DNA of 64,000 bases from Bacteroidota bacterium. GTDB lineage: Bacteria; Bacteroidota; Bacteroidia; Cytophagales; Cyclobacteriaceae. Positions 24,077 through 41,373 of the stretch are shown in pieces. The position numbers and the translations under genes were made by a program. The first letter of the stretch is position 1; each line of letters starts with the position of its first letter. The stretch spans positions 1-64,000 of the forward strand of contig JAFDYY010000006.1 of the NCBI GenBank assembly GCA_018267195.1, read 5' to 3'. The notes under the pieces were generated by a model. The model saw only the letters and a list, made by a program, of their open reading frames with translations, was not told the DNA's origin and did no database searches.

Positions 24077-24089
24077 ATGTAATCAGGTT

Positions 24090-24836
24090 CTAGTTGTGGG
24101 GAAATCCAGGTACCGGTAAATCTGAGTTGGCCGAAGCGCCCCCTCCAGATTCTTTTTTGTTACCACCAAGCAGGGTTACTATACCTCCGCCTATTGCCAG
24201 CGGAACAATCGCCTTTACTAAGGCGGGAACTTTACGCACGATCTTAAAGTAGGGTGTATAAATAACTTCCTCAGCATTACGGGTATCGGAAATTTTCAAT
24301 CGGTAATCGTCATCGGCTTTAGAATCGGCTGGGATAAAGAGAGTAAAAGCCCCATTATTAGGTTGTTGCATACTTCCTTGTATGCGGGTGTTGCCTTTGT
24401 ATAGCTCTATATTAATAGGGTTGCTATTGCCTACTTTCCACAATAAATCATAACTTTTACCTCTTTTGTATTTTGCCGCTGTAGTAGTAAAACTTTGCAA
24501 TTTTATAAAGGGCACAAATACTTTGCCTCTCACCTCAAGTGCAAGCTTTCCCTTGTACCCGCCCCATTCGTTGCGAATGGCCCAGATCATTTTTTTATTG
24601 GTTCCAGGCTTTATTTCAGCTCCTACATCGCCTGTAACTTTCTTTAGGGGAGCAGAGAAATTATCATTCGATGCATAAAGATTAAGTAAAAACTCGCTGG
24701 ATGAGTTGGAATACTCTAAATCATAGTTAACAATAATATTATCGCCAGATAGCTCGACACTTTTAATGGTTACAGTTTGGGCTTGGCTATAAAATGAGAG
24801 AAATAAAAAGATGCAAACGAGAGTAAATGCTTTCAT
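24090..24836 (-). CDS. Small exported beta-domain protein, first gene of caspase/T9SS set
   Basis: A 248-residue protein with a signal peptide (MKAFTLVCIFLFLSFYSQAQ). The first ~110 residues resemble a beta domain seen at the N-terminus of many exported Bacteroidota proteins (NIIVNYDLEYSNS, LNLYASNDNFSAPLKKVTGDVG, KPGTNKKMIWAIRNEWGG). A second beta domain (~115-200) resembles the Ig-like folds of surface proteins. Near the end is one hydrophobic, glycine-rich segment (LVKAIVPLAIGGGIVTLLGG) that could span a membrane, followed by a short polar tail. It precedes the giant T9SS gene by 13 bp. Function unknown; an accessory or anchor role is inference from position. Confidence 0.75.
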   Translation of the reverse strand: MKAFTLVCIFLFLSFYSQAQTVTIKSVELSGDNIIVNYDLEYSNSSSEFLLNLYASNDNFSAPLKKVTGDVGAEIKPGTNKKMIWAIRNEWGGYKGKLALEVRGKVFVPFIKLQSFTTTAAKYKRGKSYDLLWKVGNSNPINIELYKGNTRIQGSMQQPNNGAFTLFIPADSKADDDYRLKISDTRNAEEVIYTPYFKIVRKVPALVKAIVPLAIGGGIVTLLGGNKKESGGGASANSDLPVPGFPHN

Positions 24837-24927
24837 ACGTAAGGAATTTTTAATAATTAAAATTAGTTAAAACTCCTCTTTAATACGAATTATTTTAATG
24901 ATTAATTAATATCAAATTTAGATGATA

Positions 24928-25914
24928 TTAAACAGACATGCTCTGAAGCACAGCCAGCGAGCAGGTTGTGTGCGAATTGAGCTGGTTTATTTTTTGTTTG
25001 CGGAAAAAACCACACACCAGATTCTCTTCCTCCTCTAATTTTTCGGAAGGGCTGATTGGCAGTTCTTTTTCTTCAAAGGCGGGAAACGAAAATCCTTTTT
25101 TTTGTTTGATGAGCACATTGCGCAAGCCAATGGCCAGTTTGCTCTTTACCGTAATGGTGTTAGAGATGCCAAAGATTACTTCTGGGTTGGTTTCATTGCC
25201 CACATTAAAAATGTGGTTTTCCTTGTCGTTGAAAAATTGATTTTCCAGGTGGATGTATAAAATGCCTTCGCGCAATTCTACCAAGGCGCTTTTATAGAGA
25301 TGCCCTTCGGTAATGGTTTGCACCGTTATTTGGTCGTTACTGTCTTTTTCGATGGTGAAAGGTGCTTTGATGAGATGGTTGCTGCCATCTGATTTTTGAT
25401 AGTATAAATAGTAGTTACCCAAAAAATAATTGAGCAGCACGTCATTTTTTGCCGACTTACGTCCGGCCTTCGGAGCGGCTACCGCAGGAAACCCCAGTTT
25501 GGGCGATCGCCAGGCATCCCACTCGGCCAAGTCCACGCCCAAAAAAACCAACAGCACGTTTAATTTCGTTGCTTTGGCCTTGCCTCCATTCCAATAGCTG
25601 TGCAAGGTTTTTCCACTCACCCAATGAAAAGGCCGCTTCATGGTAGCAATAAAATGCACCAGCGCCTCTTCATCTTTTAGGTGTTTCTCAAAAAGAAAAT
25701 TTTGCAATTGGTCTTCGCCCATGATCATACGCTCGGTAACTAAAAAGGGAGCCGCAGAAATTTTTCCCGATACGGTTTTATTGATTGCGTGGGCAATGAG
25801 TTCAAACGTAGTGCGGTTAAATTTTTTCCAGTTTGGTTCGATGCCATGGTCGCTCAGCACGTCCACCAACAGGGGGGTGGTTTCAAGAGCCGATTTTATT
25901 TTGGAAGAGATCAC
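24928..25914 (-). CDS. Probable transcriptional regulator divergent from the SusCD operon
   Basis: A protein of ~328 residues I cannot name. GTG at 25914 is preferred, since upstream TTG starts (25920, 25962) would run the gene into two palindromes. Near residues 95-130 the pattern GKTLHSYWNGGKAKATKLNVLLVFLGVDLAEWDAW resembles a helix-turn-helix-like segment found in many uncharacterised Bacteroidota proteins (TLxRxxG...TLxxLAxFLGYxxW). The C-terminal ~180 residues look beta-rich (NYFLGNYYLYYQKSDGSNHL, LREGILYIHLENQFF) and could bind a ligand. Position, divergent from susC with operator-like palindromes between, supports a regulator, but DNA binding is inference. Confidence 0.6.
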   Translation of the reverse strand: MISSKIKSALETTPLLVDVLSDHGIEPNWKKFNRTTFELIAHAINKTVSGKISAAPFLVTERMIMGEDQLQNFLFEKHLKDEEALVHFIATMKRPFHWVSGKTLHSYWNGGKAKATKLNVLLVFLGVDLAEWDAWRSPKLGFPAVAAPKAGRKSAKNDVLLNYFLGNYYLYYQKSDGSNHLIKAPFTIEKDSNDQITVQTITEGHLYKSALVELREGILYIHLENQFFNDKENHIFNVGNETNPEVIFGISNTITVKSKLAIGLRNVLIKQKKGFSFPAFEEKELPISPSEKLEEEENLVCGFFRKQKINQLNSHTTCSLAVLQSMSV

Positions 25915-25940
25915 ATTCAAACATACAAAATTTGACGAAG

Positions 25941-25955
25941 ATTTGACCGTCAAAT
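25941..25955. promoter_or_regulatory. Operator-like palindrome 1
   Basis: ATTTGAC-C-GTCAAAT is a perfect 7+1+7 palindrome in the susC/regulator gap. A further TTTGAC half-site lies just beside it at 25931-25936. Confidence 0.55.
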
Positions 25956-25957
25956 AA

Positions 25958-25972
25958 CACAATCGGATTGTG
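25958..25972. promoter_or_regulatory. Operator-like palindrome 2
   Basis: CACAATC-G-GATTGTG is a second perfect 7+1+7 palindrome, two bases from the first. A TATAAT-like stretch (GGTATAATAATTTG) follows at about 25975-25988, in the plus orientation toward susC. Confidence 0.55.
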
Positions 25973-26125
25973 CCGGTATAATAATTTGTTTGTCAGTCTA
26001 TTAAAAATAAAAAGAATGTTGTGTGCGCGATTTTTCTCCTGAATTTGACCGAACTACCATTGCAATACAAAATTTTATCCAACGCTCATTTTACCAAATC
26101 GCATTTTATATTAACCTATTTCTGC

Positions 26126-29100
26126 ATGACTAAATTTTACATTCTCCAGCTCCTCTTGCTGATTGCCCTGGCGGCCGGTGCGCAGCAAAATAAAATTTCC
26201 GTAAAAGGAAAAATTACAGACGAGGCCACCGGAACACCCATGCCCGGTGTAAACGTAGTTGAAAAGGGAACCACCAATGGGGTAGCCTCAGACAATGAGG
26301 GCAACTATGTTATTGTAGTGAACGAAGAGGCCACACTCGTTATTAGTTTTATTGGCTACACCCCGGCCGAAGTACCCGTAGGCAAGCGGGCCGTGGTAGA
26401 TGTTACACTGAAAGAAGGAGTGGAAGCCCTGAGCGAAGTGGTGGTGGTAGGCTATGGCACCATGGAGAAAAAAGATCTGACGGGCTCCATCGCCTCCATC
26501 AACAATAAAGAGTTTGCCAATCAACCTACTACAAACCTGGCCGGCAACATTCAGGGAAAACTGGCGGGCGTAAACATTACCCAAACTTCCGGTACACCCG
26601 GTGCCAGCTTAAGCGTAAGTGTGCGGGGAGCCTCTAACCCTTTGTATGTGGTGGATGGCATCCCGATGCTGAGCGAGAGCAATTCATCTATTCAGACGTC
26701 TACCGATGTGCAGGGCAATGTGCAGGGCAGCGGCCAGCAGGTCAGCACCATCTCCGATATTAATCCGAACGATATAGAATCGATAGAAGTGCTGAAAGAT
26801 GCTTCGGCCGCAGCGATATACGGAGCGCGTGCCTCGAACGGGGTTGTGCTTATTACCACCAAGCGGGGGAAATCGGGCAAGACCAAATTCAATGTTAATT
26901 ATTACACCGGTGTGCAGACACCAACCCGTGAAATAAAATTTCTCGACAATCAGCAGTTTATGGATTTAATTAATGATGCCATTACTCAGGATAAATTGCT
27001 CTATGCGGCCAACCCCAATGTGTTTGGCCCGGGCTTTACGTACGTGGGCTCCGGCCTGGATGCACCTTTTAATTTTGGCAGTGCCAGCGACCAGAAAGTA
27101 AACACCAACTGGCTGCACCAGGTTTTGCGAAATGCCCCGATTAACAATGCCGAGGTATCGGCCACGGGTGGAAATGATAAAACAAAATTCTATGTAGCCG
27201 GCACCTACTTCGACCAAACCGGTATTGTGATTGAGTCGGCCTATAAACGGTTCAGCACCCGTGTAAATCTGGATCATCAGGCTACTGATAAATTATCGTT
27301 TGGTCTTACCTTCAATGCATCGTATTCTAAAAATCACCGCAGCTTTAACGATGACTCGTACACCGGAGTAATTACCAATGCCATCGGGGCAGACCCGCTT
27401 ATGCCGGTGTATGATGCCAACGGAGGGTACGCCAACTACCAGAATTACCATACTTCGTGGCTTTCGGATAACCCGGTAAAATCGGCCAGAGAAATTAAAG
27501 CCTACACCAATAGCTACCGGTTATTGGGTACGCTGTTTGCCGAATATAAATTCAGCCCGAGTCTGAAATTTAAAACCAGTTGGTCGTCCGATTATAATAA
27601 CCTGATCGACAATCAATATTTCTCGCCTATTACGGCCAATGCCCAGGCGCAAGGCGGCATAGCACGGGCTTCTATTTTTCAGCAGCTTACCTGGCTGAAC
27701 GAAAATATTTTAACCTTCAACAAAACAGTTGGTCAAAGTAAAATCAACGCGTTGGCGGGATACACCATGCAGCAAACCGGCTCTACCACCAACGGGCTGG
27801 CCGGGCAGGGATTCCCTTCGGGCGGCCTTCAAAATATTTCGAGTGCTGCCATTATTACGCAGGGCATATCTACCGGCACCGGCTTTGGGCTGGTGTCGTA
27901 CATCGGGCGCATCAATTACGAATACAAAGACAAATACCTTTTGTCGGTTACTTCGCGCATTGACGGCTCCTCCCGGTTCCCGAAAAACAACCGCTATGCG
28001 TTGTTCCCTTCCGTATCGGCCGGATGGCGCATTTCGAGCGAAGAATTTTTTGGCAACAACCCCACCCTTACCAATTTAAAACTGCGTGCCAGCTACGGAT
28101 TTACGGGCGATCAGGAAATTGGAAATTTTCAGAATGTATCGCTCTACAAACCTACCAAGTATAACAACTTTGGAGGACTTGCCCCAGCCCAGTTGGTAGA
28201 TCCGCGCCTTCGCTGGCAAACCAATAAAACATTTGATGTGGGATTGGATTGGGAATTATTTCAGGGGCGCATCAGTGGTACGATTGACTATTTTAAATCC
28301 GACAAAACCAATGTGCTGAGCAACAACAGTGTGGCCGGCACTACGGGCTTTTCTACCGTGGTGCAAAATGCCGGGCAAATTGAAAATCGCGGATGGGAGT
28401 TTTCCGTCAGCTCGACCAACATTCAAAATGAAAAATTAAAGTGGACTTCCAATTTTAATATTTCGTTCATCAAAAATGAAATCATTTCATTAACCAACGA
28501 TGGGTTGCAGGTAAGTGCCTACCTCGACAATGCGCCCACCAATATTTTGAAAAAGGGACAACCCGTTGGGGCATTTTGGGCCGTAAAATACCTGGGTGTA
28601 AACCCTGCCAATGGCGATGAACTTTTTTTGAGCCACACCGGAGGCACAGCCGGCCAGGCAGTAAATGCCTCTAATGTCAGTATGCAAGATGCCGAGATAT
28701 CGGGCAGCCCCATTCCCAAATTTTTTGGAGGATTTAATAACCATTTTAATTTTGGAAAATTTGATGTGCTGTTGGCTACTCAATTTAGCTGGGGCAACAA
28801 AATCTATAACCTGATTAAACAAACGTATGTAAACATGGGCTGGTCGAATGGCGGAGGTTCGGCTCAGATTTATGCCAACAACTCTACGGCTTTGCTGAGG
28901 CGCTGGCGCAAGCCGGGCGATATTACCGACATAGGCCGGGCTTCGTTTATCAATCAAAATTATTTTAACAACTCTACCCAGTTTATTGAAGACGGATCGT
29001 TCTGGCGCATTCGCACACTGGCCGTAGGCTATACCATCAAACCAAAGTCGATGGCTTTCGATCGCATCCGGGTATATGCTCAAGTGCAAAATCTTTTTGT

Positions 29101-29233
29101 GTGGACTAAGTACACCGGCTTTGACCCGGAGGTGAGTTCTACCGGCAGCAGCAATCCATACACAGCCGGCATAGACTATGCAGCCTACCCGCAACCCCGC
29201 ACATACACGTTAGGTTTTAATATCACTTTTTAA
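26126..29233 (+). CDS. SusC/RagA family TonB-linked outer-membrane transporter
   Basis: A protein of 1035 residues. ATG 26126 starts the signal peptide MTKFYILQLLLLIALAAGAQ; the longer frame from 26021 would put 35 residues before it. Then comes the CarboxypepD_reg-like domain (ISVKGKITDEATGTPMPGVNV), the TonB-box and plug (LSEVVVVGYGTMEKKDLTGS, VLKDASAAAIYGARASNGVV) and the large barrel ending in an aromatic residue (TYTLGFNITF). Family knowledge: SusC proteins import bulky nutrients through the outer membrane with a SusD lid, driven by TonB. It is the first gene of a nine-gene operon with catabolic enzymes for amines, so the cargo is likely an amine, peptide or N-acyl compound rather than a sugar. 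No extracytoplasmic sigma or anti-sigma pair is next to it. Confidence 0.95.
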   Translation: MTKFYILQLLLLIALAAGAQQNKISVKGKITDEATGTPMPGVNVVEKGTTNGVASDNEGNYVIVVNEEATLVISFIGYTPAEVPVGKRAVVDVTLKEGVEALSEVVVVGYGTMEKKDLTGSIASINNKEFANQPTTNLAGNIQGKLAGVNITQTSGTPGASLSVSVRGASNPLYVVDGIPMLSESNSSIQTSTDVQGNVQGSGQQVSTISDINPNDIESIEVLKDASAAAIYGARASNGVVLITTKRGKSGKTKFNVNYYTGVQTPTREIKFLDNQQFMDLINDAITQDKLLYAANPNVFGPGFTYVGSGLDAPFNFGSASDQKVNTNWLHQVLRNAPINNAEVSATGGNDKTKFYVAGTYFDQTGIVIESAYKRFSTRVNLDHQATDKLSFGLTFNASYSKNHRSFNDDSYTGVITNAIGADPLMPVYDANGGYANYQNYHTSWLSDNPVKSAREIKAYTNSYRLLGTLFAEYKFSPSLKFKTSWSSDYNNLIDNQYFSPITANAQAQGGIARASIFQQLTWLNENILTFNKTVGQSKINALAGYTMQQTGSTTNGLAGQGFPSGGLQNISSAAIITQGISTGTGFGLVSYIGRINYEYKDKYLLSVTSRIDGSSRFPKNNRYALFPSVSAGWRISSEEFFGNNPTLTNLKLRASYGFTGDQEIGNFQNVSLYKPTKYNNFGGLAPAQLVDPRLRWQTNKTFDVGLDWELFQGRISGTIDYFKSDKTNVLSNNSVAGTTGFSTVVQNAGQIENRGWEFSVSSTNIQNEKLKWTSNFNISFIKNEIISLTNDGLQVSAYLDNAPTNILKKGQPVGAFWAVKYLGVNPANGDELFLSHTGGTAGQAVNASNVSMQDAEISGSPIPKFFGGFNNHFNFGKFDVLLATQFSWGNKIYNLIKQTYVNMGWSNGGGSAQIYANNSTALLRRWRKPGDITDIGRASFINQNYFNNSTQFIEDGSFWRIRTLAVGYTIKPKSMAFDRIRVYAQVQNLFVWTKYTGFDPEVSSTGSSNPYTAGIDYAAYPQPRTYTLGFNITF

Positions 29234-29244
29234 GCATTGCTATC

Positions 29245-30657
29245 ATGAAAACTATTTATATCTACTTATTCATCTTCGCAGCCATCATAACTTCTTGTAA
29301 CGTGCTTGATCAGGTATCGCCCAGTCAGGTAAATACCGCTACAGTCTTTACTAACGCAGCGGGTGCCGAGTCGGCATTAGTGGGCATGTATAGCTCAATG
29401 CAAAACAGTTATTATTATGGGGCTTATTTTCCGCTGCTGTCGGATGTGTACAGCGATGTAAGCAAAGCCGGTGGGTTTAATGTTACCGCACTGGATGAGA
29501 TCAGCAACTACCAGATCAGCACCGGCAATATATTGGTGCAGAATATGTATGTGGCCATCTACTACACCATTGCAGCAGCCAACGGCATTATTGCCAATGT
29601 GCCGGGCATTAAAGACCCTACCTTTACACAGGCGCAGAAAGACAGCATAGTAGGGCAGGCGTATGCCGTTCGAGCGATGGCTCATTTTGATTTGCTGCGC
29701 ACTTTTGGTCAACATTGGGACCTAAGTTCTAATTATGGCATACCGGTGGTTACCTCGGTGCAGAGTTATAACAGTGTGGTATCGCGCAGCACGGTAGCAC
29801 AAACCTATCAGGCTATCATCAGCGATTTGCAGCAAGCTAATTCGTTGTTGCCGCAAAGTAAGCCGTATCTAAACGCTTACATTAATCCCGATGCGGTGCA
29901 GGCATTGCTCGCCCGTGTTTACCTCTACAAAAAGGATTATGCTAATGCCATTGCCGCGGCCAGTCAGGTAATCAGCGATGGATCATTTGGATTACTGGGT
30001 TCCGGGAACTTCACCCAGATTTATTCTTCCAAGCTGTCGAAAGAATCTGTTTTTGAGTTGGTATTTAATGTGCAAAACCAGAGCGCCTATAATTCATATA
30101 CTTATAGCCGCACACAGGCTTTAGTAACGGAGGTGTTGTTTAAGGCCGATACCACCATGAATATTTTTTACAACAACCACCCGGCCGACTTGCGTGCGCA
30201 GTTGGTCGATTTTTCTGCGGCTACGGAAAGTAATTTTTTGCCTTATGGCCGAACACAGAAATACCGGGGTGAAATTAACAAAGACAATTCGGCCTACATT
30301 ATTCGCATGGCCGAAGTTTATCTGATCCGGGCCGAAGCAAAAGCATTGAGCGGAGATATGCCCGGTGGGCTTGCCGACTTAAATTCGGTGCGCACTAACC
30401 GTGGGTTGGCGGCCTACACCAGTACCGATATCAGTAATCTTTATGCGGGCGATTTTGTGGCGGCCGTACTTGATGAACGCTTTTCAGAACTGAATTTTGA
30501 AGGCCACCGTATGTTCGACCTGGCCCGCACCCAACGAAGAAGTTTGGTTTTGAACGGCTCGGGGGCGGATGATTATACCGACATTTTTCCCATACCCAAC
30601 CGCGAGTTGGTAGCGATTAATAATTCCAGTCTGATGTTTCAAAACCCGGGATATTAA
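29245..30657 (+). CDS. SusD/RagB family surface lipoprotein
   Basis: A 470-residue lipoprotein with lipobox ITSC (Cys18) after MKTIYIYLFIFAAI. It is the substrate-capturing lid of the SusC transporter. Family marks are the N-terminal helices (ASQ-type region AGAESALVGMYSSMQ), TPR-like helices (AQAYAVRAMAHFDLLRTFG-like, here GQAYAVRAMAHFDLL), the EVYLIRAEAKAL segment, and the C-terminal signature ELNFEGHRMFDLARTQRR and FPIPNRELVAINN. It lies 11 bp after susC. No carbohydrate-binding module or glycosidase is nearby, which supports a non-glycan cargo. Confidence 0.95.
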   Translation: MKTIYIYLFIFAAIITSCNVLDQVSPSQVNTATVFTNAAGAESALVGMYSSMQNSYYYGAYFPLLSDVYSDVSKAGGFNVTALDEISNYQISTGNILVQNMYVAIYYTIAAANGIIANVPGIKDPTFTQAQKDSIVGQAYAVRAMAHFDLLRTFGQHWDLSSNYGIPVVTSVQSYNSVVSRSTVAQTYQAIISDLQQANSLLPQSKPYLNAYINPDAVQALLARVYLYKKDYANAIAAASQVISDGSFGLLGSGNFTQIYSSKLSKESVFELVFNVQNQSAYNSYTYSRTQALVTEVLFKADTTMNIFYNNHPADLRAQLVDFSAATESNFLPYGRTQKYRGEINKDNSAYIIRMAEVYLIRAEAKALSGDMPGGLADLNSVRTNRGLAAYTSTDISNLYAGDFVAAVLDERFSELNFEGHRMFDLARTQRRSLVLNGSGADDYTDIFPIPNRELVAINNSSLMFQNPGY

Positions 30658-30692
30658 ATTTAAGAAGAGGAGAAAGATTTTTTGAAGGGATT

Positions 30693-32189
30693 ATGAGATC
30701 AGCACTGACACTTATTTTGAAGAGATCGTTTGCCCGGTCGGCAGCCAAATTTCAACCCGGCCGAAGAGAATTTTTGCGCCAGAGCGCGATGGCTGGAGTG
30801 GCCTTGGCGCTGCCCCTGCAAAGTTGTGTAGATCATAAAAAATCTATTGCCATTGTAGGGGCGGGCATTGCCGGGCTTACGACAGCATATACATTAAAGA
30901 AAAATCAGATTTCTGCTACTCTCTACGAAGCCCAAGGCCGGGCCGGAGGCAGAATTCTTACCATACCCGATGCCGTGGTAGATGGAGCCTATGTAGATTT
31001 TGGGGCCGAGTACATAGATTCTACCCATACCGATCTGCTGGGTTTATCGAAAGAGTTGGGCGTAGAAATAACCGATCTGCAACAAGATAAACTGGAGTCG
31101 CATTATTATTTTTTTCAAGGAAAGAAAATTACGGAAGATGAATTAGTGAAAGAACTGCAGCCGTTTGTGCCGCAGCTTACCAAAGACATTGATTCCATTC
31201 CCGATGAGTTGCATTACAGCAAAGGCGATGAATACCGCCAGTTAGATAATTTATCGGTAACCGAATACCTGCAAAAAATTGGCGTGAAAGGTTGGCTATA
31301 CGATTTTTTCGATACCGTTATTACCAGCGAGTATGGTATGGAAGCATCGGAGCAATCGGCTATCAATTTAATTTATGTATTGGCGTTGCCGGTAAAAATA
31401 GGAAGCCCTTACCATGCGCTGGGGCTGGAGCATGAGGTATTCAAATTTAAAGGCGGAAGTCAGCAATTGATTACGAAACTGGAAGAGCAAGTAAAAGATC
31501 AGATTCAAACCGGCTGGAGGCTTATTAAGTTATACAAGAATAAACATGATTACACCCTGACGTTTGAAGTGAATGGAAAAACTAAAACGATTCAATCAGA
31601 CCTCGTTGTGCTTACCTTGCCCTTTACCGTGCTGCGACAGGTAGAATTGAATTTTGAATTTCCCGCCCGCAAGAAAAAATGTATTGCCGAATTAGGCTTT
31701 GGCATAGCCGCTAAAACGGCCATGGGTTTTAAGAAACGGATATGGCGCGAACAGGGCTATCAGGGATACACCTATTCCGATATTAACCGCACCACTATTT
31801 GGGACAGCTCGCAAGGGGTGGATACCTCACAAGGTTCGCTCACATTTGTTACCGGAGGCAAAGAATCCATAGATTTTCAAAACCTGGATTATGCCGCCAT
31901 TAAAGAAAGATGGCTGGGAGGGGCCGAAAAATTTTTTCCCGGCTTGGCCGAACAGTATAATGGTCGCATTGCTAAGTTTTGCTGGGCTACCAATCCTTTT
32001 TCTAAAGGTAGTTATGCTTCCTATACCAAAGGGCAGGCTTCAGAGTTTGCCGGAGTGGAGTTTGAGCCTTTCGAAAATATTTTTTTTGCTGGTGAACACT
32101 GTAGTGTTTTACACCAGGGGTTTATGAATGGGGCTGCCGAAACAGCCAACCGGGTTTCCCGGCTTATTCAAAAAGCGATTACTACATAA
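30693..32189 (+). CDS. Tat-exported FAD-dependent amine oxidase (MAO/LAAO family)
   Basis: A 498-residue flavin enzyme that would oxidise an amine or amino acid to an imine, which hydrolyses to an aldehyde or keto acid plus ammonia. The N-terminus has a twin-arginine motif (GRREFLRQS, Arg24-25), a hydrophobic stretch, and a lipobox LQSC (Cys45), so it is likely folded with FAD, exported and anchored as a lipoprotein. The FAD-binding Rossmann motif is IAIVGAGIAGLTTAYTL, followed by YEAQGRAGGRI. The C-terminal FAD motif is NIFFAGEHCSVLHQGFMNGAAETANR. It lies 35 bp after susD. Export suggests that the substrate is met in the periplasm. An aromatic or polyamine substrate cannot be told apart from sequence alone. 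Confidence 0.88.
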   Translation: MRSALTLILKRSFARSAAKFQPGRREFLRQSAMAGVALALPLQSCVDHKKSIAIVGAGIAGLTTAYTLKKNQISATLYEAQGRAGGRILTIPDAVVDGAYVDFGAEYIDSTHTDLLGLSKELGVEITDLQQDKLESHYYFFQGKKITEDELVKELQPFVPQLTKDIDSIPDELHYSKGDEYRQLDNLSVTEYLQKIGVKGWLYDFFDTVITSEYGMEASEQSAINLIYVLALPVKIGSPYHALGLEHEVFKFKGGSQQLITKLEEQVKDQIQTGWRLIKLYKNKHDYTLTFEVNGKTKTIQSDLVVLTLPFTVLRQVELNFEFPARKKKCIAELGFGIAAKTAMGFKKRIWREQGYQGYTYSDINRTTIWDSSQGVDTSQGSLTFVTGGKESIDFQNLDYAAIKERWLGGAEKFFPGLAEQYNGRIAKFCWATNPFSKGSYASYTKGQASEFAGVEFEPFENIFFAGEHCSVLHQGFMNGAAETANRVSRLIQKAITT

Positions 32190-32210
32190 ATAAAATCAGT
32201 ACTTACAGCT

Positions 32211-33515
32211 ATGACAAAATCAGAAGAATTAGTAGCCCGTAGAAACGCCATCGTCCCGGAAGGGATGGGTATGTTTAGCCCGCTTACGATCCGTTCGGGA
32301 AAGGGAGCCAGAATAACCGATGCCGATGGAAAAGAATTTATTGATTTTGCTGGCGGCATCGGGGTGCTAAACGGTGGGCACTGTCCCCAGCCCGTAGTGG
32401 ATGCCATTGTGGAACAAACAAAAAAATTAATTCATGCCTGTTTTCCGGTGGCGATATACGAGCCTTACGTAAAACTTTGCGAAGAACTGGCCGCCCTTTT
32501 CCCTCACGGAAAAAAAACGAAAGTGATGTTGGTAAATTCAGGAGCCGAAGCGGTGGAAAATGCTGTGAAGATTGCCCGGCAGGCTACCGGCCGCCAGGGT
32601 ATCATTTGTTTTACGGGCGGGTTTCATGGCCGTACCTTGTTAGGGATGACACTCACATCTAAAGTGGGCTACAAAATCGGGTGTGGCCCGTTTGCCCCCG
32701 AAGTGTACCGCATTCCTTTTCCCGATTATTACCAGCACCACGATGGGCTCACCATGGATGAGTTTGTTGTGCGCGAACTGCAAGCATTTGAATCGTACCT
32801 GCACAGCGTGGCAGATGCCTCGCAAGTAGCGGCTGTTATTTTAGAGTTGGTGCAAGGCGAAGGCGGTTTTGTGGTGGCTCCAAAAAAATACGTGCAAGAG
32901 CTTCATAAAATTTGTCAAAGCAAAGGCATCTTGCTTATTGTTGACGAAGTGCAAACAGGTTTTGGCCGCACGGGCAAGTGGGCGGCCTACCAGCACTACA
33001 ATATTGTGCCGGATATTTCTACGTGGGCTAAATCCATGGGCAGCGGCATGCCGATTGGCGCGGTTATGGGCCGGGCAGAGGTCATGGATAAAACCACGAA
33101 AGGAACATTGGGCGGCACGTACCCGGGCAACCCCGTGGCTTGTGCGGCATCGCTGGCTACTATCGACCTGATGAAAAAAATAGACATCGCCAAAAAAGGA
33201 GAGCAGGTAGGAAAAATAGTGAAAGACTATTTCGATGATTTAAAAAAAGATTGCCCCGCCATAGGCGATGTACGCGGGCTGGGTGCCATGGTGGCTTTTG
33301 AGTTGGTAAAAAATAATGACCCTCGCCAACCCGATACCGATCTGTGCAAAAAGATGATTCAGGCATGTGCTCAACAGGGGTTGCTCATTATCAGCGCAGG
33401 TGTCTCATCTAATATCATCCGGGTACTCAGCCCCTTGGTAATTGAAACCGATGATTTATTGAAGGGGTTGAAAATCATTCGTACTGAATTGATCAAACTA
33501 ACCACACAAAAATAA
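32211..33515 (+). CDS. Class III aminotransferase (4-aminobutyrate type), paralogue 1
   Basis: A 434-residue PLP enzyme of the GabT/omega-aminotransferase group that moves a terminal amino group to a keto acid. Family marks are FIDFAGGIGVLNGGH, NSGAEAVENAVKIAR, GFHGRTLLGM, the Asp of LLIVDEVQTGFGRTG and the PLP-lysine in STWAKSMGSGMPIGAV. It has no signal peptide, so it is cytosolic. It lies 21 bp after the amine oxidase gene and 4 bp before the GNAT gene. A second paralogue follows at 34188. Substrates could be GABA, a polyamine, beta-alanine or an acyl-ornithine. Confidence 0.93.
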   Translation: MTKSEELVARRNAIVPEGMGMFSPLTIRSGKGARITDADGKEFIDFAGGIGVLNGGHCPQPVVDAIVEQTKKLIHACFPVAIYEPYVKLCEELAALFPHGKKTKVMLVNSGAEAVENAVKIARQATGRQGIICFTGGFHGRTLLGMTLTSKVGYKIGCGPFAPEVYRIPFPDYYQHHDGLTMDEFVVRELQAFESYLHSVADASQVAAVILELVQGEGGFVVAPKKYVQELHKICQSKGILLIVDEVQTGFGRTGKWAAYQHYNIVPDISTWAKSMGSGMPIGAVMGRAEVMDKTTKGTLGGTYPGNPVACAASLATIDLMKKIDIAKKGEQVGKIVKDYFDDLKKDCPAIGDVRGLGAMVAFELVKNNDPRQPDTDLCKKMIQACAQQGLLIISAGVSSNIIRVLSPLVIETDDLLKGLKIIRTELIKLTTQK

Positions 33516-33519
33516 TAGC

Positions 33520-34191
33520 ATGATTGGCAATCCATCTTTTGTTTACCGGAAAGACGTGGGAGAAGGGTTGGTGATCATGACTACGCAGCCAGAACACGCC
33601 CCCCAGTTAGAAGCACTACAGCAAATTGTTTTCCCTACCCTGGCTTCGGAGTCGCTCATGCGCAAAGAACATTACCTTAACCATATCCGTATTTTCCCCG
33701 AAGGTCAGTTTGTTGTTTTGCATTCCGATCAGGTAGTAGGTATGACTACCAGCATCCGCTATCACCTCACTTTGGGCGAACAACATACCTTTGATGAAAT
33801 GCTGGACGGAGGGTTTTTAAACACGCATGACCCAACCGGAGCCTGGCTATACGGTATGGATATTGGCACCCACCCCGATTTTAGAGGGAAAGGTATTGCC
33901 ACGTACCTGTACGATGCCCGGCAGGATACCGTAAAAAAATTGAACTTAAAAGGTCAGTTTACCTATGGCATGCTCAGTGGCTACGGTGCGGTAAAAGATA
34001 AAATGAAAGCAGAGGATTATTATCAGCAAGTCGTTTCAAATAAAATAAAAGACCCGACCGTATCCCGACAAATAAAAAATGGATTTGTTCCTCAGGGGTT
34101 GGTGGCCGGGTATGTTAACGACCCGGTGTGTGCCGGGTATTGCGCTTTTTTAATTCGCGAAAACGAAAATTACAAACCGAAACCGATATGA
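33520..34191 (+). CDS. GNAT family N-acetyltransferase
   Basis: A 223-residue acetyltransferase using acetyl-CoA. The pyrophosphate-binding loop is in IGTHPDFRGKGIATYLYDAR (motif A, R-x-x-G-x-G/A). The protein is larger than minimal GNATs, with an N-terminal strand-rich part (GLVIMTTQPEHAPQLEALQQ) and a C-terminal extension. It is inserted between two class III aminotransferase genes and overlaps the second by four bases (ATGA), so it must be co-translated with them. It may acetylate an amine intermediate or product of the operon; the acceptor is unknown. Confidence 0.88.
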   Translation: MIGNPSFVYRKDVGEGLVIMTTQPEHAPQLEALQQIVFPTLASESLMRKEHYLNHIRIFPEGQFVVLHSDQVVGMTTSIRYHLTLGEQHTFDEMLDGGFLNTHDPTGAWLYGMDIGTHPDFRGKGIATYLYDARQDTVKKLNLKGQFTYGMLSGYGAVKDKMKAEDYYQQVVSNKIKDPTVSRQIKNGFVPQGLVAGYVNDPVCAGYCAFLIRENENYKPKPI

Positions 34192-35531
34192 CAGCCCCAA
34201 CAAAAAAAACGATTAAACTGAACACCCCGATCCCCGGGCCTAAGGCTCAAGCTATTTTAGCCAGACGTGCCAACGCAGCACCGGCCGGCTTGGCCAAATC
34301 AACGGAGGTGGTCGTGGCCGATGCCAAAGGAGCCGTGATTACGGATGTAGATGGTAACACCTTACTTGATTTTGCCGGAGCCATCGGGGTGATGAATATA
34401 GGTCACTGCAACCCAGCGGTGGTAAAGGCAGTGCAACAACAAATGGAAAAATATGTGCACACCTGCACGCTGGTTACCACCATGGAGCCAATGGTAGAGT
34501 TGTGCGAACTGCTTAACCAGGTTACGCCCGGCCGCTTTGCCAAAAAAACATTGTTAGCTAATTCTGGCAGCGAAGCCGTAGAAAATGCAGTAAGCATCGC
34601 CCGCTATTATACCAAACGAAAAGGAGTAATCTGTTTTGAAGCAGGCTATCATGGCCGAACTTTGCTTACGTTGAGCTTAACTTCAAAGTATGGATTGTTT
34701 AAAAAAGGAATGGGGCCTTTTGCCGGAGACATATACCGGCTGCCGGCACCTAATGTTTATAGAAAGCCCGATCCATTTACCGAAAAAGAATATGTTGACC
34801 AGTGCATCCAAAATTTGCGCAATGCACTCATAGCGCAGATTGATGCATCCGATCTGGCCGCTATTCTGATTGAGCCGGTGCAGGGAGAAGGCGGATTTAT
34901 TCCTATACCCGAACCCTTTCTAAGAGAGATCAGAAATATCTGCAACGAAACCGGTGCCGTGATGATTGCCGATGAAATTCAAAGCGGCTTTGGGCGGACC
35001 GGAAAACTGTTTGCTTTCGATCACTATGATTTTGCTCCGGATATAATTACTACCGCCAAATCATTGGGCGCAGGCATGCCCATTTCGGCTACCGTAGGCA
35101 AGGCAGAGATGATGGATAGTGTACATCTGGGCGGTATTGGCGGAACGTATGGCGGCTCGCCCGTAGCTTGTGCGGCAGCGATCGCAGTAATTAAAGAAAT
35201 GACCTCTCCGGCTTTTAGGCAGCAGGCCGAAAAGGTGGGCAACCAATTAGCAAAACGGCTGGAAGAATGGAAAAATAAGTATGCTATTGTTGGCGATGTG
35301 CGCGGGTTGGGAGCAATGCGGTTGGTAGAGTTTGTGAAAGACCGGAAAACCAAAACACCCGACCCCGACCTGACGTTGAAAATTATTAAAGAAGCCGTAG
35401 CCAATGGAATCGTGCTCATTCGGGCGGGGCTCTTCAGCAATGGCATTCGCCTGTTGCCACCTTTGGTCATCACCGAGGATCAGTTGAATGAAGGATTAGA
35501 CATACTTGAAGCGGCCATTAAAAACGCCTAA
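34188..35531 (+). CDS. Class III aminotransferase (4-aminobutyrate type), paralogue 2
   Basis: A 447-residue PLP enzyme, similar to the protein at 32211 but clearly diverged. The start is ATG 34188, overlapping the GNAT stop; the in-frame GTG at 34128 is an artefact of the overlapping frame. Family marks are LLDFAGAIGVMNIGHCNPAV, NSGSEAVENAVSIARY, YHGRTLLTLSLTSKYG, MIADEIQSGFGRTGK and the PLP-lysine in TTAKSLGAGMPIS. It is cytosolic. Two aminotransferases in one operon suggest two transamination steps, as in putrescine to GABA to succinic semialdehyde; that route is inference. Confidence 0.92.
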   Translation: MTAPTKKTIKLNTPIPGPKAQAILARRANAAPAGLAKSTEVVVADAKGAVITDVDGNTLLDFAGAIGVMNIGHCNPAVVKAVQQQMEKYVHTCTLVTTMEPMVELCELLNQVTPGRFAKKTLLANSGSEAVENAVSIARYYTKRKGVICFEAGYHGRTLLTLSLTSKYGLFKKGMGPFAGDIYRLPAPNVYRKPDPFTEKEYVDQCIQNLRNALIAQIDASDLAAILIEPVQGEGGFIPIPEPFLREIRNICNETGAVMIADEIQSGFGRTGKLFAFDHYDFAPDIITTAKSLGAGMPISATVGKAEMMDSVHLGGIGGTYGGSPVACAAAIAVIKEMTSPAFRQQAEKVGNQLAKRLEEWKNKYAIVGDVRGLGAMRLVEFVKDRKTKTPDPDLTLKIIKEAVANGIVLIRAGLFSNGIRLLPPLVITEDQLNEGLDILEAAIKNA

Positions 35532-35538
35532 CGTCAGC

Positions 35539-37119
35539 GTGGAACGCACCCTCTATCATAACGCTACCATATACACCCAAAATCCGGATAGGCCTCAGGC
35601 CGGAGCGGTTGTGGTGGAACACGGAAAATTTTTGGCAGTAGGTAAGGAGAGCGATCTCTTAGATTCCTTTACCAGTTCGAGCAGACGGATAGATGTAAAA
35701 GGTCAAACCATTTTACCCGGCTTCAACGATGCCCATATTCATTTATGGAAGGTGGGCCAGTTAGAAACTTTTTTATTGGACTTGCGCGGTACCAAAAGCA
35801 TTAAAGCCCTCCAAGAATTATTGAACCAAAGTGCTGCTTCCCTGCCTCCGGGTACGTGGATTATGGGGCGCGGCTTTAACGAGCATACGTTAGAAGAAAA
35901 ACGAATGCCCGATAAAAATGATTTGGACGAAGTGAGCACCGCTCACCCCATTTACCTGATTCGCACGTGCGCCCATATTGCTTCCGTTAATTCGCTGGCA
36001 CTAAAAAAATCAGGCGTAACGGAAACAACACAAATTCCAGCGGGTGGCGTCATCGGGAAAGACAGCCGGGGAAATCTGAACGGAATATTTTATGAAACTG
36101 CGTTGGGGCTGATAACCCGCCACATTCCTGCTCCCACGCAAGAACAATACGAGCAGATGATTGCACGGGGCATAGAAAAAATGTTGTCGCTGGGTATTAC
36201 CAGCATTACGGATCCGGCTGCTCACCCCGAGTTGCTAAAGGCGTATCACAGCTATTGCCAAAAATACCAAGCGATCATTCGGCTCAATATTTTTCCCATC
36301 CTTTTGCCCGATGGTGGAGAAAAACCTTACCCGTTGCCCGAACTTTTCCATTCTGATTTTTTGAATATTGATACCGTTAAATTTTTTTCAGATGGCGGTC
36401 TGAGCGGCCAAACAGCAGCTCTTTCGCGTCCATACAAAAATTCTTCTGATTGTGGTGTGTTGCGCTTAGATGCCGATTTGTTTTTTAGCTTGGCTTGCGA
36501 AGCACAACAAAAGGGATTTCGCATCGCCACCCACGCCATAGGCGATGCCGCCATTGAGTTGGTTGTAGAAACTTATAAAAAACTACACAAGTTATTTGGT
36601 TACACGCGAAACCGGATCGAACATTTTGGGCTGCCCACCCCGGCACACGAAAACGATATGGCAGCCTACCAGTGGGTGGCGGTACCTCAACCGGTTTTTT
36701 TGCATGAACTGGGAGAAAATTTTTGTGCCGCATTAGATGATACCTTTTTATCGCACTGCTATCCGGTAAAATCGCTATTACAAAAAAATATTCCGGTGGC
36801 GTTCTCAACCGATGGCCCCGTGGTAAGCAACATCAACCCATTCAGCAATATTAAAGATGCCATACTCAGAAAAACGGCCAATGGTAAAGTAATTTCACCA
36901 GACGAATCTGTTTCATTGGCAGAAGCATTGCATGCCTACACCCTAGGGAGTGCTTTTGCAGAAGAGAAAGAACGCACCAAAGGAAAAATTGAAAAAGGCT
37001 ATGTGGCCGATTTTATTATAACCGATAAAAACCCATTCCTTACGAGCACGAATGAATTGGATTCTATTCGGGTAAAAGAAACGTATGTAAATGGAAAGTG
37101 TTTATGGAAGAGTATGTAA
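35539..37119 (+). CDS. Amidohydrolase family 3 (YtcJ-like) metal-dependent hydrolase
   Basis: A protein of ~526 residues in the amidohydrolase superfamily, with metal ligands in LPGFNDAHIHLWKVG (HxH), ATHAIGDAAIELV, and the late aspartate in AFSTDGPVVSNINPFSNI. The family includes N-substituted formamide deformylases and other C-N hydrolases. I choose GTG 35539 (VERTLYHNATIYTQNP), 7 bp after the previous stop; a TTG at 35506 overlapping the aminotransferase is possible. No signal peptide is visible. In this operon it could release a free amine from an N-acyl or N-formyl compound before oxidation or transamination. The substrate is unknown. Confidence 0.88.
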   Translation: MERTLYHNATIYTQNPDRPQAGAVVVEHGKFLAVGKESDLLDSFTSSSRRIDVKGQTILPGFNDAHIHLWKVGQLETFLLDLRGTKSIKALQELLNQSAASLPPGTWIMGRGFNEHTLEEKRMPDKNDLDEVSTAHPIYLIRTCAHIASVNSLALKKSGVTETTQIPAGGVIGKDSRGNLNGIFYETALGLITRHIPAPTQEQYEQMIARGIEKMLSLGITSITDPAAHPELLKAYHSYCQKYQAIIRLNIFPILLPDGGEKPYPLPELFHSDFLNIDTVKFFSDGGLSGQTAALSRPYKNSSDCGVLRLDADLFFSLACEAQQKGFRIATHAIGDAAIELVVETYKKLHKLFGYTRNRIEHFGLPTPAHENDMAAYQWVAVPQPVFLHELGENFCAALDDTFLSHCYPVKSLLQKNIPVAFSTDGPVVSNINPFSNIKDAILRKTANGKVISPDESVSLAEALHAYTLGSAFAEEKERTKGKIEKGYVADFIITDKNPFLTSTNELDSIRVKETYVNGKCLWKSM

Positions 37120-37131
37120 ATTTAAAATAGC

Positions 37132-38589
37132 ATGTTTCAACTTAGCGATCTCCAGTTGCCCTTTGTACCCAAGCAATACATTAATGGAAAATGGTGTGAA
37201 GCGACCAACAGAAAAACCTGGAAAGTAATTAACCCGGCTACCGAAAAAATAATTGTTGAAGTTCCTTTCGGCAATGATCAGGATTGTACTTTGGCTATTT
37301 CCGCGGCCCGTGCGGCTTTCCGAAGTTGGTCGGCAACTAACCCATTTGAGCGAGCCATTATTTTAAAAAAGGCTTCGGCTATGATGCACGAACGCTTGGC
37401 CGAATATGCTAAAGTAACCGTGCTGGAAAGCGGCAAACCGTTGGCCGAAGCCGTAGGCGAGTGGCGGGTAGCAGCTAATTTTTTTGAGTGGTATGCCGAA
37501 GAAGGGAAGCGTAATTACGGAAGTATTGTGCCGGCTAACCGGAACAATAAACGCATGTCGGTGGTGCATCAGCCGATGGGTGTGGTGGGAGCCATTACCG
37601 CATGGAATTTTCCCGCCTACAACCCGGCTCGGTGCTGGTCGGCCGCATTGGGGGCCGGCTGCACAGTGGTAGCTAAAGTTTCCGAATATACTCCGCTTAC
37701 CGGCATGTTGCTGGCACAATGTCTTCATGAGGCAGGCCTGCCGGCCGGGGTATTAAATGTAGTAAACGGAGAGCCGGCTCGCATAGGCGAGGAAATGCTG
37801 CGAAACCCCGATGTGCGCAAAATCAGTTTTACAGGAAGTACCCGCGTGGGTAAAATTCTGATGGACGGAGCTTCTCAAAATATCAAACGGCTTTCGCTCG
37901 AATTAGGCGGCAACGCCCCTGTCATTATATTTCCGGATGTGGATGTAAAAAAAGTGGCGGAAGAATCGGTGGTAGCCAAACTGCGCAATGCCGGCCAGGT
38001 ATGTATTGCCCCCCAGCGGTATATTGTTCATGAAAGCATCACAAAAAAATTTACTGAGTATGCGGCCGCTAAAATGGAGCAAATAAAAATGGGCAACGGG
38101 TTAGAAGTTACTACAGAAATGGGACCGATGATCAATTTACCCCAGCGCGAAAATTTAGAAAAATTGGTAGCGGCATCGCAAGCTGCCGGAGCAGAAATAA
38201 TAGTAGGCGGAAAACGGGGAAAAGAAGAAGGGTATTTTTATCAGCCTACGTTAATCCAGCCCAACGATGAGCATAACCCTGTTTTTCAACAAGAAATTTT
38301 CGGACCGGTTATGCCGGTTATTTCTTTCCGCAACGAAGCGGAAGCCATTCGGTTAGCCAATGCTACACAATATGGACTTGCTTCGTATTTGTGGACGAAC
38401 GACCTCAAAACTTCGATCCGCGTATCGGAGCAGATTGAGTTTGGTATGGTAGGGATTAACGAATGGTATCCGCAGGCATTTGAAGCTCCCTTTGGTGGCT
38501 GGAAGCAAAGTGGGTTAGGCTATGAGTGTGGCAAAGACGGACTGGAAGAATATCAGGAAAGAAAATTAATCAGTATAGGTGGATTATAA
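37132..38589 (+). CDS. NAD(P)-dependent aldehyde dehydrogenase (semialdehyde type)
   Basis: A 485-residue enzyme of the ALDH superfamily that oxidises an aldehyde to an acid. The family marks are the oxyanion Asn in AITAWNFPAYNPARC, the cofactor loop KISFTGSTRVGK, the catalytic Glu in LELGGNAPVIIF, and the catalytic Cys in NAGQVCIAPQRYIV. The C-terminal PFGGWKQSGLGYE segment is intact. It is cytosolic. It follows the amidohydrolase by 12 bp. Similarity in layout to succinate-semialdehyde and betaine/aminoaldehyde dehydrogenases fits oxidation of the aldehydes made by the aminotransferases or the amine oxidase. Confidence 0.93.
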   Translation: MFQLSDLQLPFVPKQYINGKWCEATNRKTWKVINPATEKIIVEVPFGNDQDCTLAISAARAAFRSWSATNPFERAIILKKASAMMHERLAEYAKVTVLESGKPLAEAVGEWRVAANFFEWYAEEGKRNYGSIVPANRNNKRMSVVHQPMGVVGAITAWNFPAYNPARCWSAALGAGCTVVAKVSEYTPLTGMLLAQCLHEAGLPAGVLNVVNGEPARIGEEMLRNPDVRKISFTGSTRVGKILMDGASQNIKRLSLELGGNAPVIIFPDVDVKKVAEESVVAKLRNAGQVCIAPQRYIVHESITKKFTEYAAAKMEQIKMGNGLEVTTEMGPMINLPQRENLEKLVAASQAAGAEIIVGGKRGKEEGYFYQPTLIQPNDEHNPVFQQEIFGPVMPVISFRNEAEAIRLANATQYGLASYLWTNDLKTSIRVSEQIEFGMVGINEWYPQAFEAPFGGWKQSGLGYECGKDGLEEYQERKLISIGGL

Positions 38590-38624
38590 TTTTATAAACA
38601 GTAATTAGAAGTTAAAATTTTTTC

Positions 38625-39989
38625 ATGCACGACTTCGGCTTGTTAACATTACTCCCCGTGTTAGTTATGATTGTGCTGGCCGTCATCACACGCTCTTCAT
38701 TCGAGCCATTAGTGGTGGGAATAATAACAGGCTGCATTATTGCGTACCATGAAAATTTCCTGACTAAGTTTATTGAACACCTGACCACGGCCCTTACCGA
38801 CAAAAGCAGCGGCTGGGTAATATTGGTTTGCATGATGTATGGCTCGCTGATTACAATGATGATTCGCGGAGGCGGAACGATTGCGTTTGGAAATTTTTTA
38901 TTGAAGTTTGTAAAGAACAGACGAGGAGCATTGTTGGCCGCCTGGGTACTGGGTATATTAATTTTTGTAGATGATTACCTGCATTCACTGGCGGTAGGTG
39001 CCGCCATGAAAAAAATAACCGATAAATATTTTATTTCACGCGAACTGTTGGCTTACATTGTGCATGCCACCTCTGCGCCCTTATGTATTTTGCTACCGAT
39101 CACGACATGGTCTATTTTCATCAGCGGTATTTTAGAAAAGAATGGTGTGGTGCCGGTGGGGCAGGGGATGTATGGATACATGAAAGCCATGCCGTTTATG
39201 ATAGTGGGGTTTGTGGGGATTGTGCTGGTGCTGGGCGTAGTGCTGGGGTGGGTACCGATTTTGGGAAAAATGAAAAAGGCAGAAGCCCGATCGGCTACGG
39301 GTGTAACCGTTCCGTACGAACCCAGCCAAGTGGTGGAGGAGGCCGAGAAGGAAATGGAAACGGCAACTAAAAATAAACTAAGCTATTTTGTCTTGCCATT
39401 GGTTGTGCTGTTGGTCACTACTGTTTATTTTGGTTTCGATGCTCTGAAAGGCGCACTCATCGCTAATTTTTTTACCTTCTTTTATTTTTTGATTGATCGG
39501 ACCCTATCGCTTCGTCAGTTGTCCGATGCTATTTTGAAAGGATTCAATACTATTTTGTTCCCCATTATTTTGGTCATCCTTGCTTTTGCCATGAAATTGG
39601 TAAACGATGATCTTCATCTGGTTCCGTATGTTATCTCGCATGTAAAGCCGTATATGAGCCGCGAGTTATTTCCGGCTATCGCCTTTTTTACATTGGCCGT
39701 AATTGCTTTTCTAACCAGCACCTCGTGGGATTTATATGTCATTGCCATTCCGCTGATTGTGCCGTTAGCGCAGAGTTTGCAGGTAAACGTGTGGCTGTCG
39801 GTAAGTGTGGTGGTGGGGGCCGGGGCGTTTGGATCGGGTTCCGGCTTTTTCAGCGACTCTACTATTTTGTGTGCATCGTCCACCGAATGCCCACCCATGG
39901 TGCATGCCCTGACTCAACTTCCTTATGTGTTGATTACACTGGTGCTATCAACAGTAGGGTATATACTGGTGGGTACATGGATGGCGTAA
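38625..39989 (+). CDS. NhaC-type Na+/H+ antiporter family membrane protein
   Basis: A 454-residue polytopic membrane protein with about 10-12 hydrophobic segments and the family marks ILIFVDDYLHSLAVGAAM, SAPLCILLPITTWSIFISG and AGAFGSGSGFFSDSTILC. NhaC family members are mostly annotated Na+/H+ antiporters, but some transport organic acids or amino compounds in exchange. As the last gene of an amine-catabolism operon (35-bp gap) it is a good candidate for moving the imported amine or an end product across the inner membrane. No strong terminator was seen in the 94 bp after it. Confidence 0.85.
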   Translation: MHDFGLLTLLPVLVMIVLAVITRSSFEPLVVGIITGCIIAYHENFLTKFIEHLTTALTDKSSGWVILVCMMYGSLITMMIRGGGTIAFGNFLLKFVKNRRGALLAAWVLGILIFVDDYLHSLAVGAAMKKITDKYFISRELLAYIVHATSAPLCILLPITTWSIFISGILEKNGVVPVGQGMYGYMKAMPFMIVGFVGIVLVLGVVLGWVPILGKMKKAEARSATGVTVPYEPSQVVEEAEKEMETATKNKLSYFVLPLVVLLVTTVYFGFDALKGALIANFFTFFYFLIDRTLSLRQLSDAILKGFNTILFPIILVILAFAMKLVNDDLHLVPYVISHVKPYMSRELFPAIAFFTLAVIAFLTSTSWDLYVIAIPLIVPLAQSLQVNVWLSVSVVVGAGAFGSGSGFFSDSTILCASSTECPPMVHALTQLPYVLITLVLSTVGYILVGTWMA

Positions 39990-40082
39990 CCTAGAATAGT
40001 AAAATAAGCGGAAAATAAATGCTATTGAGAATAAAATGCTCAGCCGGTAATTTTTAGGGTTTTGAATTAAGGCAACGAACGG

Positions 40083-40842
40083 TTAGCGCTGCTTGATTAT
40101 TGTATTGTAAAAGGATAAAAACCCGATTACTTCTTTCTCATTTTTCAATTTGTTTTTAGAAGACTTTAACCATTCATCCACTTCGTGGGTATCGATAATT
40201 TGAAGAGCCGATAGAATAGCCGATTTGTTTAATCCGCTTAGCCTAACTAAGACATTGTTAGTACCGATAAAATATTTTGTCTTGGGTATAAACCGGTTAC
40301 GACTTTCATTGCGGTATTGATTGTAATCCATTTTTCTTAACGTAACCTGAACCATTTTTACTAACTGAGTATTTCCTCCATTCAGTATCTCAAAAAATTC
40401 ATGGGTGTATTCGGGGTCTTTAAAACGTTTAAAGACACCCATGCTTTTAGAAGAATCAGTAGCATCAATAAATACAATTTTGTCTATCAGCTTTTTCACT
40501 AAAGTAAACTCCTCATTTTTTTCATTAAGATAATGAACATCATTCGTGTAAAAATTAAGCTTAACTTTTGGTAGTTTGATTTTATTGCCTGTAGACCTGT
40601 AGAAAGGAAAAGAACAGCCCGATTCCATTTCTGATCCCAAAAACAATTTCCATCTACATCATCGTATGAAACTATTTTAGCCGAACTGACGAATCCTTTA
40701 GTTAAGCCGCTATAGCCTGCATTTCCAGTGCCACCGGTCCCCACGATATCAACATTGCCGGGCTGGCCAACGAATTGAGCCATGGCCGCATGGGTCATCA
40801 AAAAAAGATACCTATTTTAAAGCCGTGGGCGCGTTGTACCAT
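40083..40842 (-). pseudogene. Frameshifted exported protein (8-bp tandem duplication)
   Basis: Two overlapping minus-strand frames make one broken protein. The upstream frame (MTHAAMAQFVGQPGNVDIVG ... WDQKWNRAVLFLSTG) and the downstream frame (STGNKIKLPKVKLNFYTNDV ... NTIIKQR) join exactly when one copy of a tandem 8-bp duplication (CCTGTAGA twice, 40588-40603, plus-strand spelling) is removed. A further upstream ATG at 40842 reads MVQRAHGFKIGIFF and would continue into LMTHAAMAQF as a signal peptide if the A7 run at 40800-40806 were A8. Both lesions leave the ~250-residue product non-functional. Family unknown; some Bacteroidota genes of this kind are surface-exported. Assembly error is possible for the homopolymer, less so for an exact 8-bp duplication. 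Confidence 0.75.
40588..40603. repeat. 8-bp tandem duplication (CCTGTAGA x2)
   Basis: Two adjacent identical copies, 40588-40595 and 40596-40603. Deleting one restores an open frame through the pseudogene at 40083-40842. Confidence 0.85.
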
Positions 40843-40888
40843 AGGTTAAATGTAAAATTATTTTTTTGCGTTCTTAAAGATGCTTCGT

Positions 40889-41001
40889 TTAAACTCAAAT
40901 CATGCAATAGAAAATCGATTGGCATGATTGACGAATGAAAATTAACAACTTACCCATGAAGATAAAATACCCCATGGTGATTTTCATGGCCAGGGTTAAA
41001 C
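40889..41001 (+). repeat. Intergenic repeat, copy 2 (~113 bp)
   Basis: This matches the reverse complement of 633-742 with few differences, from TTAAACTCAAATCATGC through the inner inverted repeat AATCATGC (40898-40905) / GCATGATT (40922-40929), CATGAAGATAAAATACCCC and GGGTTAAAC. It sits 47 bp upstream of the small exported protein gene at 41049, in the same orientation. Confidence 0.7.
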
Positions 41002-41346: not shown

Positions 41347-41373
41347 TAGACAATTTATTTTATCTTCACTACT

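What the first reader, a model, noticed from the sequence alone, without database searches (positions are those of the whole stretch)
25925..25990. Two adjacent perfect 15-bp palindromes in the regulator/susC gap
ATTTGAC-C-GTCAAAT (25941-25955) and CACAATC-G-GATTGTG (25958-25972) are each perfect 7+1+7 palindromes with only two bases between, plus an extra TTTGAC half-site at 25931 and a TATAAT-like stretch just after. Two different perfect palindromes side by side in a divergent promoter suggest two operators, perhaps for two regulators or one repressor and one activator.
Basis: seen in the sequence. Interest (0 to 1): 0.6.

Follow-up and report, generated by a model that had tools for sequence, protein, structure and literature searches.

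The report
Conserved operator between regulator and susC
One of the two neighbouring DNA palindromes is the core of a conserved docking site, built from repeated TTTGAC words, that probably lets an uncharacterised neighbouring protein switch itself and an amine-uptake gene cluster on and off; the other palindrome looks like a coincidence of this one genome.

Summary
Both palindromes are present exactly as described, but they are not equivalent. In orthologous regulator/susC gaps, palindrome 1 (25941-25955) and the TTTGAC word 11 bp before it (25931) are conserved together as a composite site, TYTGAC-N5-TYTGACNGTCARA. It occurs exactly once per genome in all six regulator-bearing genomes of the genus, always in this gap. 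In the genus its distance from the composite site is fixed (95-96 bp) while both flanking distances drift. TTTGAC is the most enriched hexamer in seven diverged gaps (23 seen, 1.8 expected). Palindrome 2 (25958-25972) is not conserved and is best read as chance. An operon without the regulator, and a regulator without adjacent susC, lack the composite site.

Most likely the 24928-25914 protein binds these sites and represses its own promoter and that of the susCD/amine-oxidase/GABA-transaminase operon, possibly by looping, until a small ligand releases it. The protein matches no Pfam or NCBIfam family; its C-terminal half is modelled as a calycin-like barrel. Binding, sign of regulation, looping and ligand are inferred, not shown.

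The parts
24928..25914 (-). Uncharacterised regulator candidate, 328 aa, GTG start at 25914 (ATG at the same codon in G001); no Pfam or NCBIfam family
25918..25925 (-). Putative -7 box TATGTTFG read as TATGTTTG (TAnnTTTG) of the regulator promoter; the transcript would be leaderless or nearly so
   Evidence: consensus from PMC9723704
25930..25936 (+). Half-site H1 ATTTGAC, 11 bp before H2 and 5 bp from the regulator -7 box
25941..25955 (.). Palindrome 1, half-sites H2 (TTTGAC 25942-25947, +) and H3 (GTCAAA 25949-25954); with H1 the composite operator
25958..25972 (.). Palindrome 2: real in sequence, not conserved; its right arm GATTGTG (25966-25972) lies where L009, L016 and L018 carry a TTTGAC half-site
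26043..26049 (+). Distal half-site C ATTTGAC, 95 bp from H3, conserved near susC in the genus and in other families
26055..26062 (+). Putative weak susC -7 box TACCATTG, exactly 5 bp after C; one mismatch to TAnnTTTG in five of six genus genomes
26126..29233 (+). susC (SusC/RagA TonB-linked outer-membrane protein)
29245..40000 (+). Rest of the putative operon: susD (29245-30657), FAD amine oxidase (30693-32189), GABA-transaminase-like (32211-33515), GNAT (33520-34191), second GABA-transaminase-like (34185-35531), amidohydrolase (35506-37119), succinate-semialdehyde-dehydrogenase-like (37132-38589), membrane transporter-like (38625-39989)

Best explanation
The feature is a composite operator of the divergently transcribed protein at 24928-25914. 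Half-sites H1 and H2 (same strand, 11 bp apart, so roughly one face of the helix) and H3 (inverted, making palindrome 1) form the main site, just upstream of the regulator's own -7 box. A fourth half-site, C, lies 5 bp upstream of the putative susC -7 box, at a fixed distance of 95-96 bp, about nine helical turns. The regulator would bind both places, hold down its own promoter and the susCD/amine-oxidase/GABA-transaminase operon, plausibly by bridging the two sites, and let go when a ligand (perhaps an amine or its breakdown product) enters its C-terminal barrel. Shown: presence, conservation, uniqueness, co-occurrence and spacing of the sites. Inferred: which protein binds, repression rather than activation, looping, ligand. 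Palindrome 2 plays no required part. Separate confidences: operator of this regulator 0.85; repression of both promoters 0.55; looping 0.4.
For: The composite pattern TYTGAC-N(3-6)-TYTGACNGTCARA has exactly one match in each of six regulator-bearing genomes, all in the gap; reversed control 0. The core palindrome pattern occurs in 5 of 6 genomes with the regulator and 2 of 54 without, both of these inside unrelated coding sequence. TTTGAC/GTCAAA is the top hexamer in seven diverged gaps: 23 against 1.8 expected, in 7 of 7. H3-to-C spacing is 95-96 bp in the genus while regulator-to-H1 varies from 9 to 20 bp and C-to-susC from 54 to 82 bp; the DNA between has near-random identity (0.28-0.39) against 0.78 and 0.71 for the two sites. 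The G016 operon, which has no regulator, carries one isolated TTTGAC only; a regulator not next to susC (L017) has none nearby. H1 and C lie 5 bp (in one genome 6) from the -7 box of their promoter where a box is recognisable. The C-terminal domain resembles small-ligand beta barrels.
Against: No binding data. The regulator has no recognised DNA-binding domain: the N-terminal model is poor (pLDDT 59) and finds no fold match. The H1-H2-H3 composite is confined to one genus in what was searched; in Ferruginibacter and in another genus of the family the TTTGAC words are arranged differently. The putative susC -7 box has a mismatch in every genome and three in G061. Repression, activation and looping cannot be told apart from sequence.
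Confidence: 0.7

Rival explanations
1. The same regulator binds the same sites but activates susC (positive control) while shutting off itself, with C helping to place RNA polymerase at a weak promoter.
For: The susC -7 box is degenerate, as at activator-dependent promoters; the composite site lies far upstream of susC.
Against: C sits between the expected -33 and -7 regions, where a bound protein usually blocks polymerase (general knowledge); no activation domain is recognisable.
Confidence: 0.3
2. Two independent operators for two different regulators, one per palindrome.
For: Two perfect palindromes two bases apart are improbable by chance in a gap of this size (P about 0.0009).
Against: Palindrome 2 is broken in the 94%-identity relative and gone in the rest; near matches elsewhere lie at scattered sites, not in the orthologous gaps; no second regulator gene was found next to the gap.
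Confidence: 0.05
3. The TTTGAC words are promoter -33 elements, not operator half-sites.
For: Bacteroidetes -33 elements contain TTG (general knowledge); H2 lies about 19 bp from a loosely TAnnTTTG-like stretch in some relatives; L016 and L018 have a perfect TACTTTTG 25-26 bp after C.
Against: A -33 element does not need the fully conserved GAC, the inverted copy H3 or the 11-bp direct repeat; the words vanish when the regulator does; no well-matched -7 box stands at the usual spacing after C in the genus.
Confidence: 0.1

Closest known systems
Divergent autoregulated local regulators with distant operators (AraC araI/O2, GalR; general knowledge)
   Same: Regulator divergent from the operon, sites at both promoters, conserved spacing near a whole number of helical turns, a C-terminal domain that could hold a ligand
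   Different: No sequence relation to AraC or GalR families found; TTTGAC half-sites in a direct plus inverted arrangement; looping not shown
AraR of Bacteroides thetaiotaomicron (BT0354, NrtR family; PMC4666351, abstract only)
   Same: Local transcription factor for a catabolic pathway in a Bacteroidete
   Different: Other protein family and other substrate class; the window protein matches no family model
Usual SusCD regulators: SusR, hybrid two-component systems, ECF sigma/anti-sigma pairs (general knowledge)
   Same: Gene beside susCD thought to control it
   Different: None of their domains was found in the window protein

Membership tests
Operator of the adjacent divergent regulator | Conserved in orthologous gaps beyond the surrounding sequence | tested here: met
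   Identity 0.78 in the composite site against 0.28 in the adjacent DNA; hexamer enrichment
Operator of the adjacent divergent regulator | Occurs with the regulator and not without it | tested here: met
   L017
Operator of the adjacent divergent regulator | Bound by the regulator protein | not testable with these tools
   Needs EMSA or footprinting
Helix-turn-helix transcription factor | HTH domain recognised by profile or fold | tested here: inconclusive
   No family match; N-terminal model poor and without fold match; the SGKTL-x-SYW segment resembles a Cro/CI recognition helix by eye only
Calycin-like ligand-binding barrel (C-terminal half) | Closed antiparallel barrel of the lipocalin/avidin kind | tested here: inconclusive
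   Designed barrels Z 11.4, Cap15 receptor Z 10.3, avidins about Z 8; model of moderate confidence
DNA-looping repression | Two sites at a conserved, helically phased distance | tested here: met
   95-96 bp in six genomes while flanks drift; geometry differs in other genera
DNA-looping repression | Repression depends on helical phase | not testable with these tools
   Needs spacing mutants
Second operator at palindrome 2 | Conserved in orthologous gaps | tested here: not met

The most novel reading that the evidence does not exclude
An undescribed family of SusCD-linked regulators, with an unrecognised DNA-binding domain and a calycin-like sensor barrel, controls amine uptake and breakdown in Bacteroidetes through TTTGAC half-sites that are bridged over a fixed nine-turn DNA loop.
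Probability: 0.3. Interest if true: 0.6.

Novelty: new variant of a known kind. Interest (0 to 1): 0.42.

Why it matters
Few regulators of Bacteroidetes SusCD systems outside glycan uptake are known. Here the sequence alone names a regulator of no described family, its likely binding word and its likely target operon (amine oxidase, GABA transaminases, succinate-semialdehyde dehydrogenase), so that one binding experiment can test the whole proposal.

Tried and rejected
Palindrome 2 as a second operator: rejected on conservation and genome scan. The TATAAT stretch as promoter: not conserved beyond the closest relative. A riboswitch or other known RNA in the gap: no Rfam match at E up to 1. A known regulator family by sequence: Pfam, NCBIfam, PHROGs and PDB sequence searches gave nothing usable. 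An HTH fold by structure: N-terminal model too poor, no fold match. Core-palindrome hits in G060 and G065 as further regulon members: both lie inside coding sequence without the H1 word. Further copies of the ATYTGAC word in the operon region 24000-41500: only one, at 26475, inside susC. Literature on a lipocalin-like Bacteroidetes regulator or on operators of such SusC loci: nothing found in the held library.

Full report
Observation. A perfect 7+1+7 palindrome is not rare by itself: the window holds 11 and first-order simulations give 5.6. Two in one 211-bp gap are improbable (P about 0.0009), so the pair deserved the second look.

Conservation separates the two. Orthologues of the neighbouring protein were found in five other genomes of the genus at 94, 71, 58, 52 and 48% identity, and in three Ferruginibacter genomes at 35-37%. 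In every genus member the gap to susC contains TYTGAC, then five bases, then TYTGAC-N-GTCARA. The palindrome is perfect in three, has one changed half-site letter in two, and is less regular in G069. Palindrome 2 has two letters changed in the closest relative, both in one arm, and no recognisable palindrome in the rest. Where it lies, L009, L016 and L018 carry another TTTGAC word instead, so its right arm (GATTGTG) may be a worn half-site, and the perfect palindrome a coincidence.

Specificity. As a pattern the composite site is found exactly once in each of the six genomes with the regulator, always in this gap, with no match of the reversed control. The core palindrome is present in 5 of these 6 (G069 differs at its edge) and in 2 of 54 genus genomes without the regulator; those two lie in unrelated coding sequences and lack the first TTTGAC. 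An unbiased count of all hexamers over seven diverged gaps puts TTTGAC first, 23 against 1.8 expected and present in all seven. No other instance of the composite exists in the genome, so the direct regulon, if the full site is needed, is local.

A distal half-site. TTTGAC recurs at 26044, 82 bp before the susC start codon. From H3 to this word the distance is 95, 95, 95, 96, 96 and 96 bp in the genus and 97 in two Ferruginibacter gaps, while the distance from the regulator start to H1 and from C to susC changes by 11 and 28 bp, and the DNA between the sites is close to random identity. Constant length without constant sequence suggests a geometric constraint, such as bridging of the two sites; about nine turns of B-DNA would put both on one face. 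In a second genus of the family (L045, L046) and in L047 the words are present, but their layout differs, so this constraint is shown only for the genus and, loosely, for Ferruginibacter.

Promoters. On the minus strand TATGTTTG (25925-25918) matches the TAnnTTTG -7 consensus reported for Flavobacterium psychrophilum (PMC9723704) and is kept in five of six genomes; it is so close to the start codon that the mRNA would be leaderless or nearly so. H1 lies 5 bp from it (6 in one genome). On the plus strand the best match near C is TACCATTG, TATGTTCG or TATTATTG, in five of six genomes with one mismatch and exactly 5 bp after C. Both promoters would thus have a TTTGAC word at the same place beside the -7 box. 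A protein bound there would be expected to block polymerase, which is why repression of both is preferred here; this is inference, and transcription starts have not been mapped.

Co-occurrence. An orthologue of the FAD amine oxidase of the operon is found in 7 of 60 genus genomes: the six with the regulator, and G016. G016 has susC-susD-amine oxidase-transaminase but no regulator beside it, and its susC upstream region has one isolated TTTGAC. In L017 the regulator stands beside other genes, without susC next to it, and its upstream region has no TTTGAC word. In L016 the regulator, susC, susD, amine oxidase and transaminase stand together as in the window.

The protein. No Pfam or NCBIfam family matches any of nine members or the window protein, nor does a PDB sequence search. 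The predicted model has a helical N-terminal part and a C-terminal barrel of moderate confidence. The barrel resembles designed beta barrels, the Cap15 nucleotide receptor, avidins and lipocalin-type proteins, which fits a small-ligand sensor but proves none. The N-terminal part was modelled alone with poor confidence and gave no match. That it binds DNA is therefore argued from genomic association, not from fold. The invariant segment W-x-SGKTL-x-SYW followed by LxxFL recalls helices 3 and 4 of Cro/CI-type domains; this is recalled, not tested.

The operon. susC and susD are followed by an FAD amine oxidase, two proteins scoring best against 4-aminobutyrate transaminase models though below the curated cut-offs, a GNAT protein, an amidohydrolase, an aldehyde dehydrogenase closest to succinate-semialdehyde dehydrogenase (also below cut-off) and a membrane transporter-like protein. 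Uptake and breakdown of an amine by way of GABA-like intermediates is the likely role, hence the guess about the ligand.

Verdict. The maintained feature is a multi-part TTTGAC operator reaching from 25930 to 26049.

Noticed in passing
window 25914-25925: The regulator mRNA is predicted to be leaderless or nearly so: the -7 box ends four bases before the start codon, in four of the five genomes that have the box; GTG start in the window, ATG in G001.
   Followed up: partly
window 24928-25914: The regulator belongs to a protein family with no Pfam or NCBIfam model; weak relatives (L008, L012, about 270 aa) share its C-terminal half and a segment LIAKFLGYKNYRLF.
   Followed up: partly
L017 7500-8950: In one Ferruginibacter genome the regulator sits next to a histidine kinase/LytTR pair and not beside susC, and the TTTGAC sites are missing.
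   Followed up: partly
window 26126-39989: A susCD operon linked to amine and GABA-type catabolism rather than to glycans; the amine oxidase is found in only 7 of 60 genomes of the genus.
   Followed up: partly
L016 and L018, gap positions 150-158 from the regulator start: In Ferruginibacter a perfect TACTTTTG box lies 25-26 bp after the distal TTTGAC, unlike the genus of the window, so the susC promoter layout may differ there.
   Followed up: no
L047 gap (G556): The regulator/susC gap is twice as long (about 409 bp) and carries four TTTGAC words in yet another arrangement.
   Followed up: no
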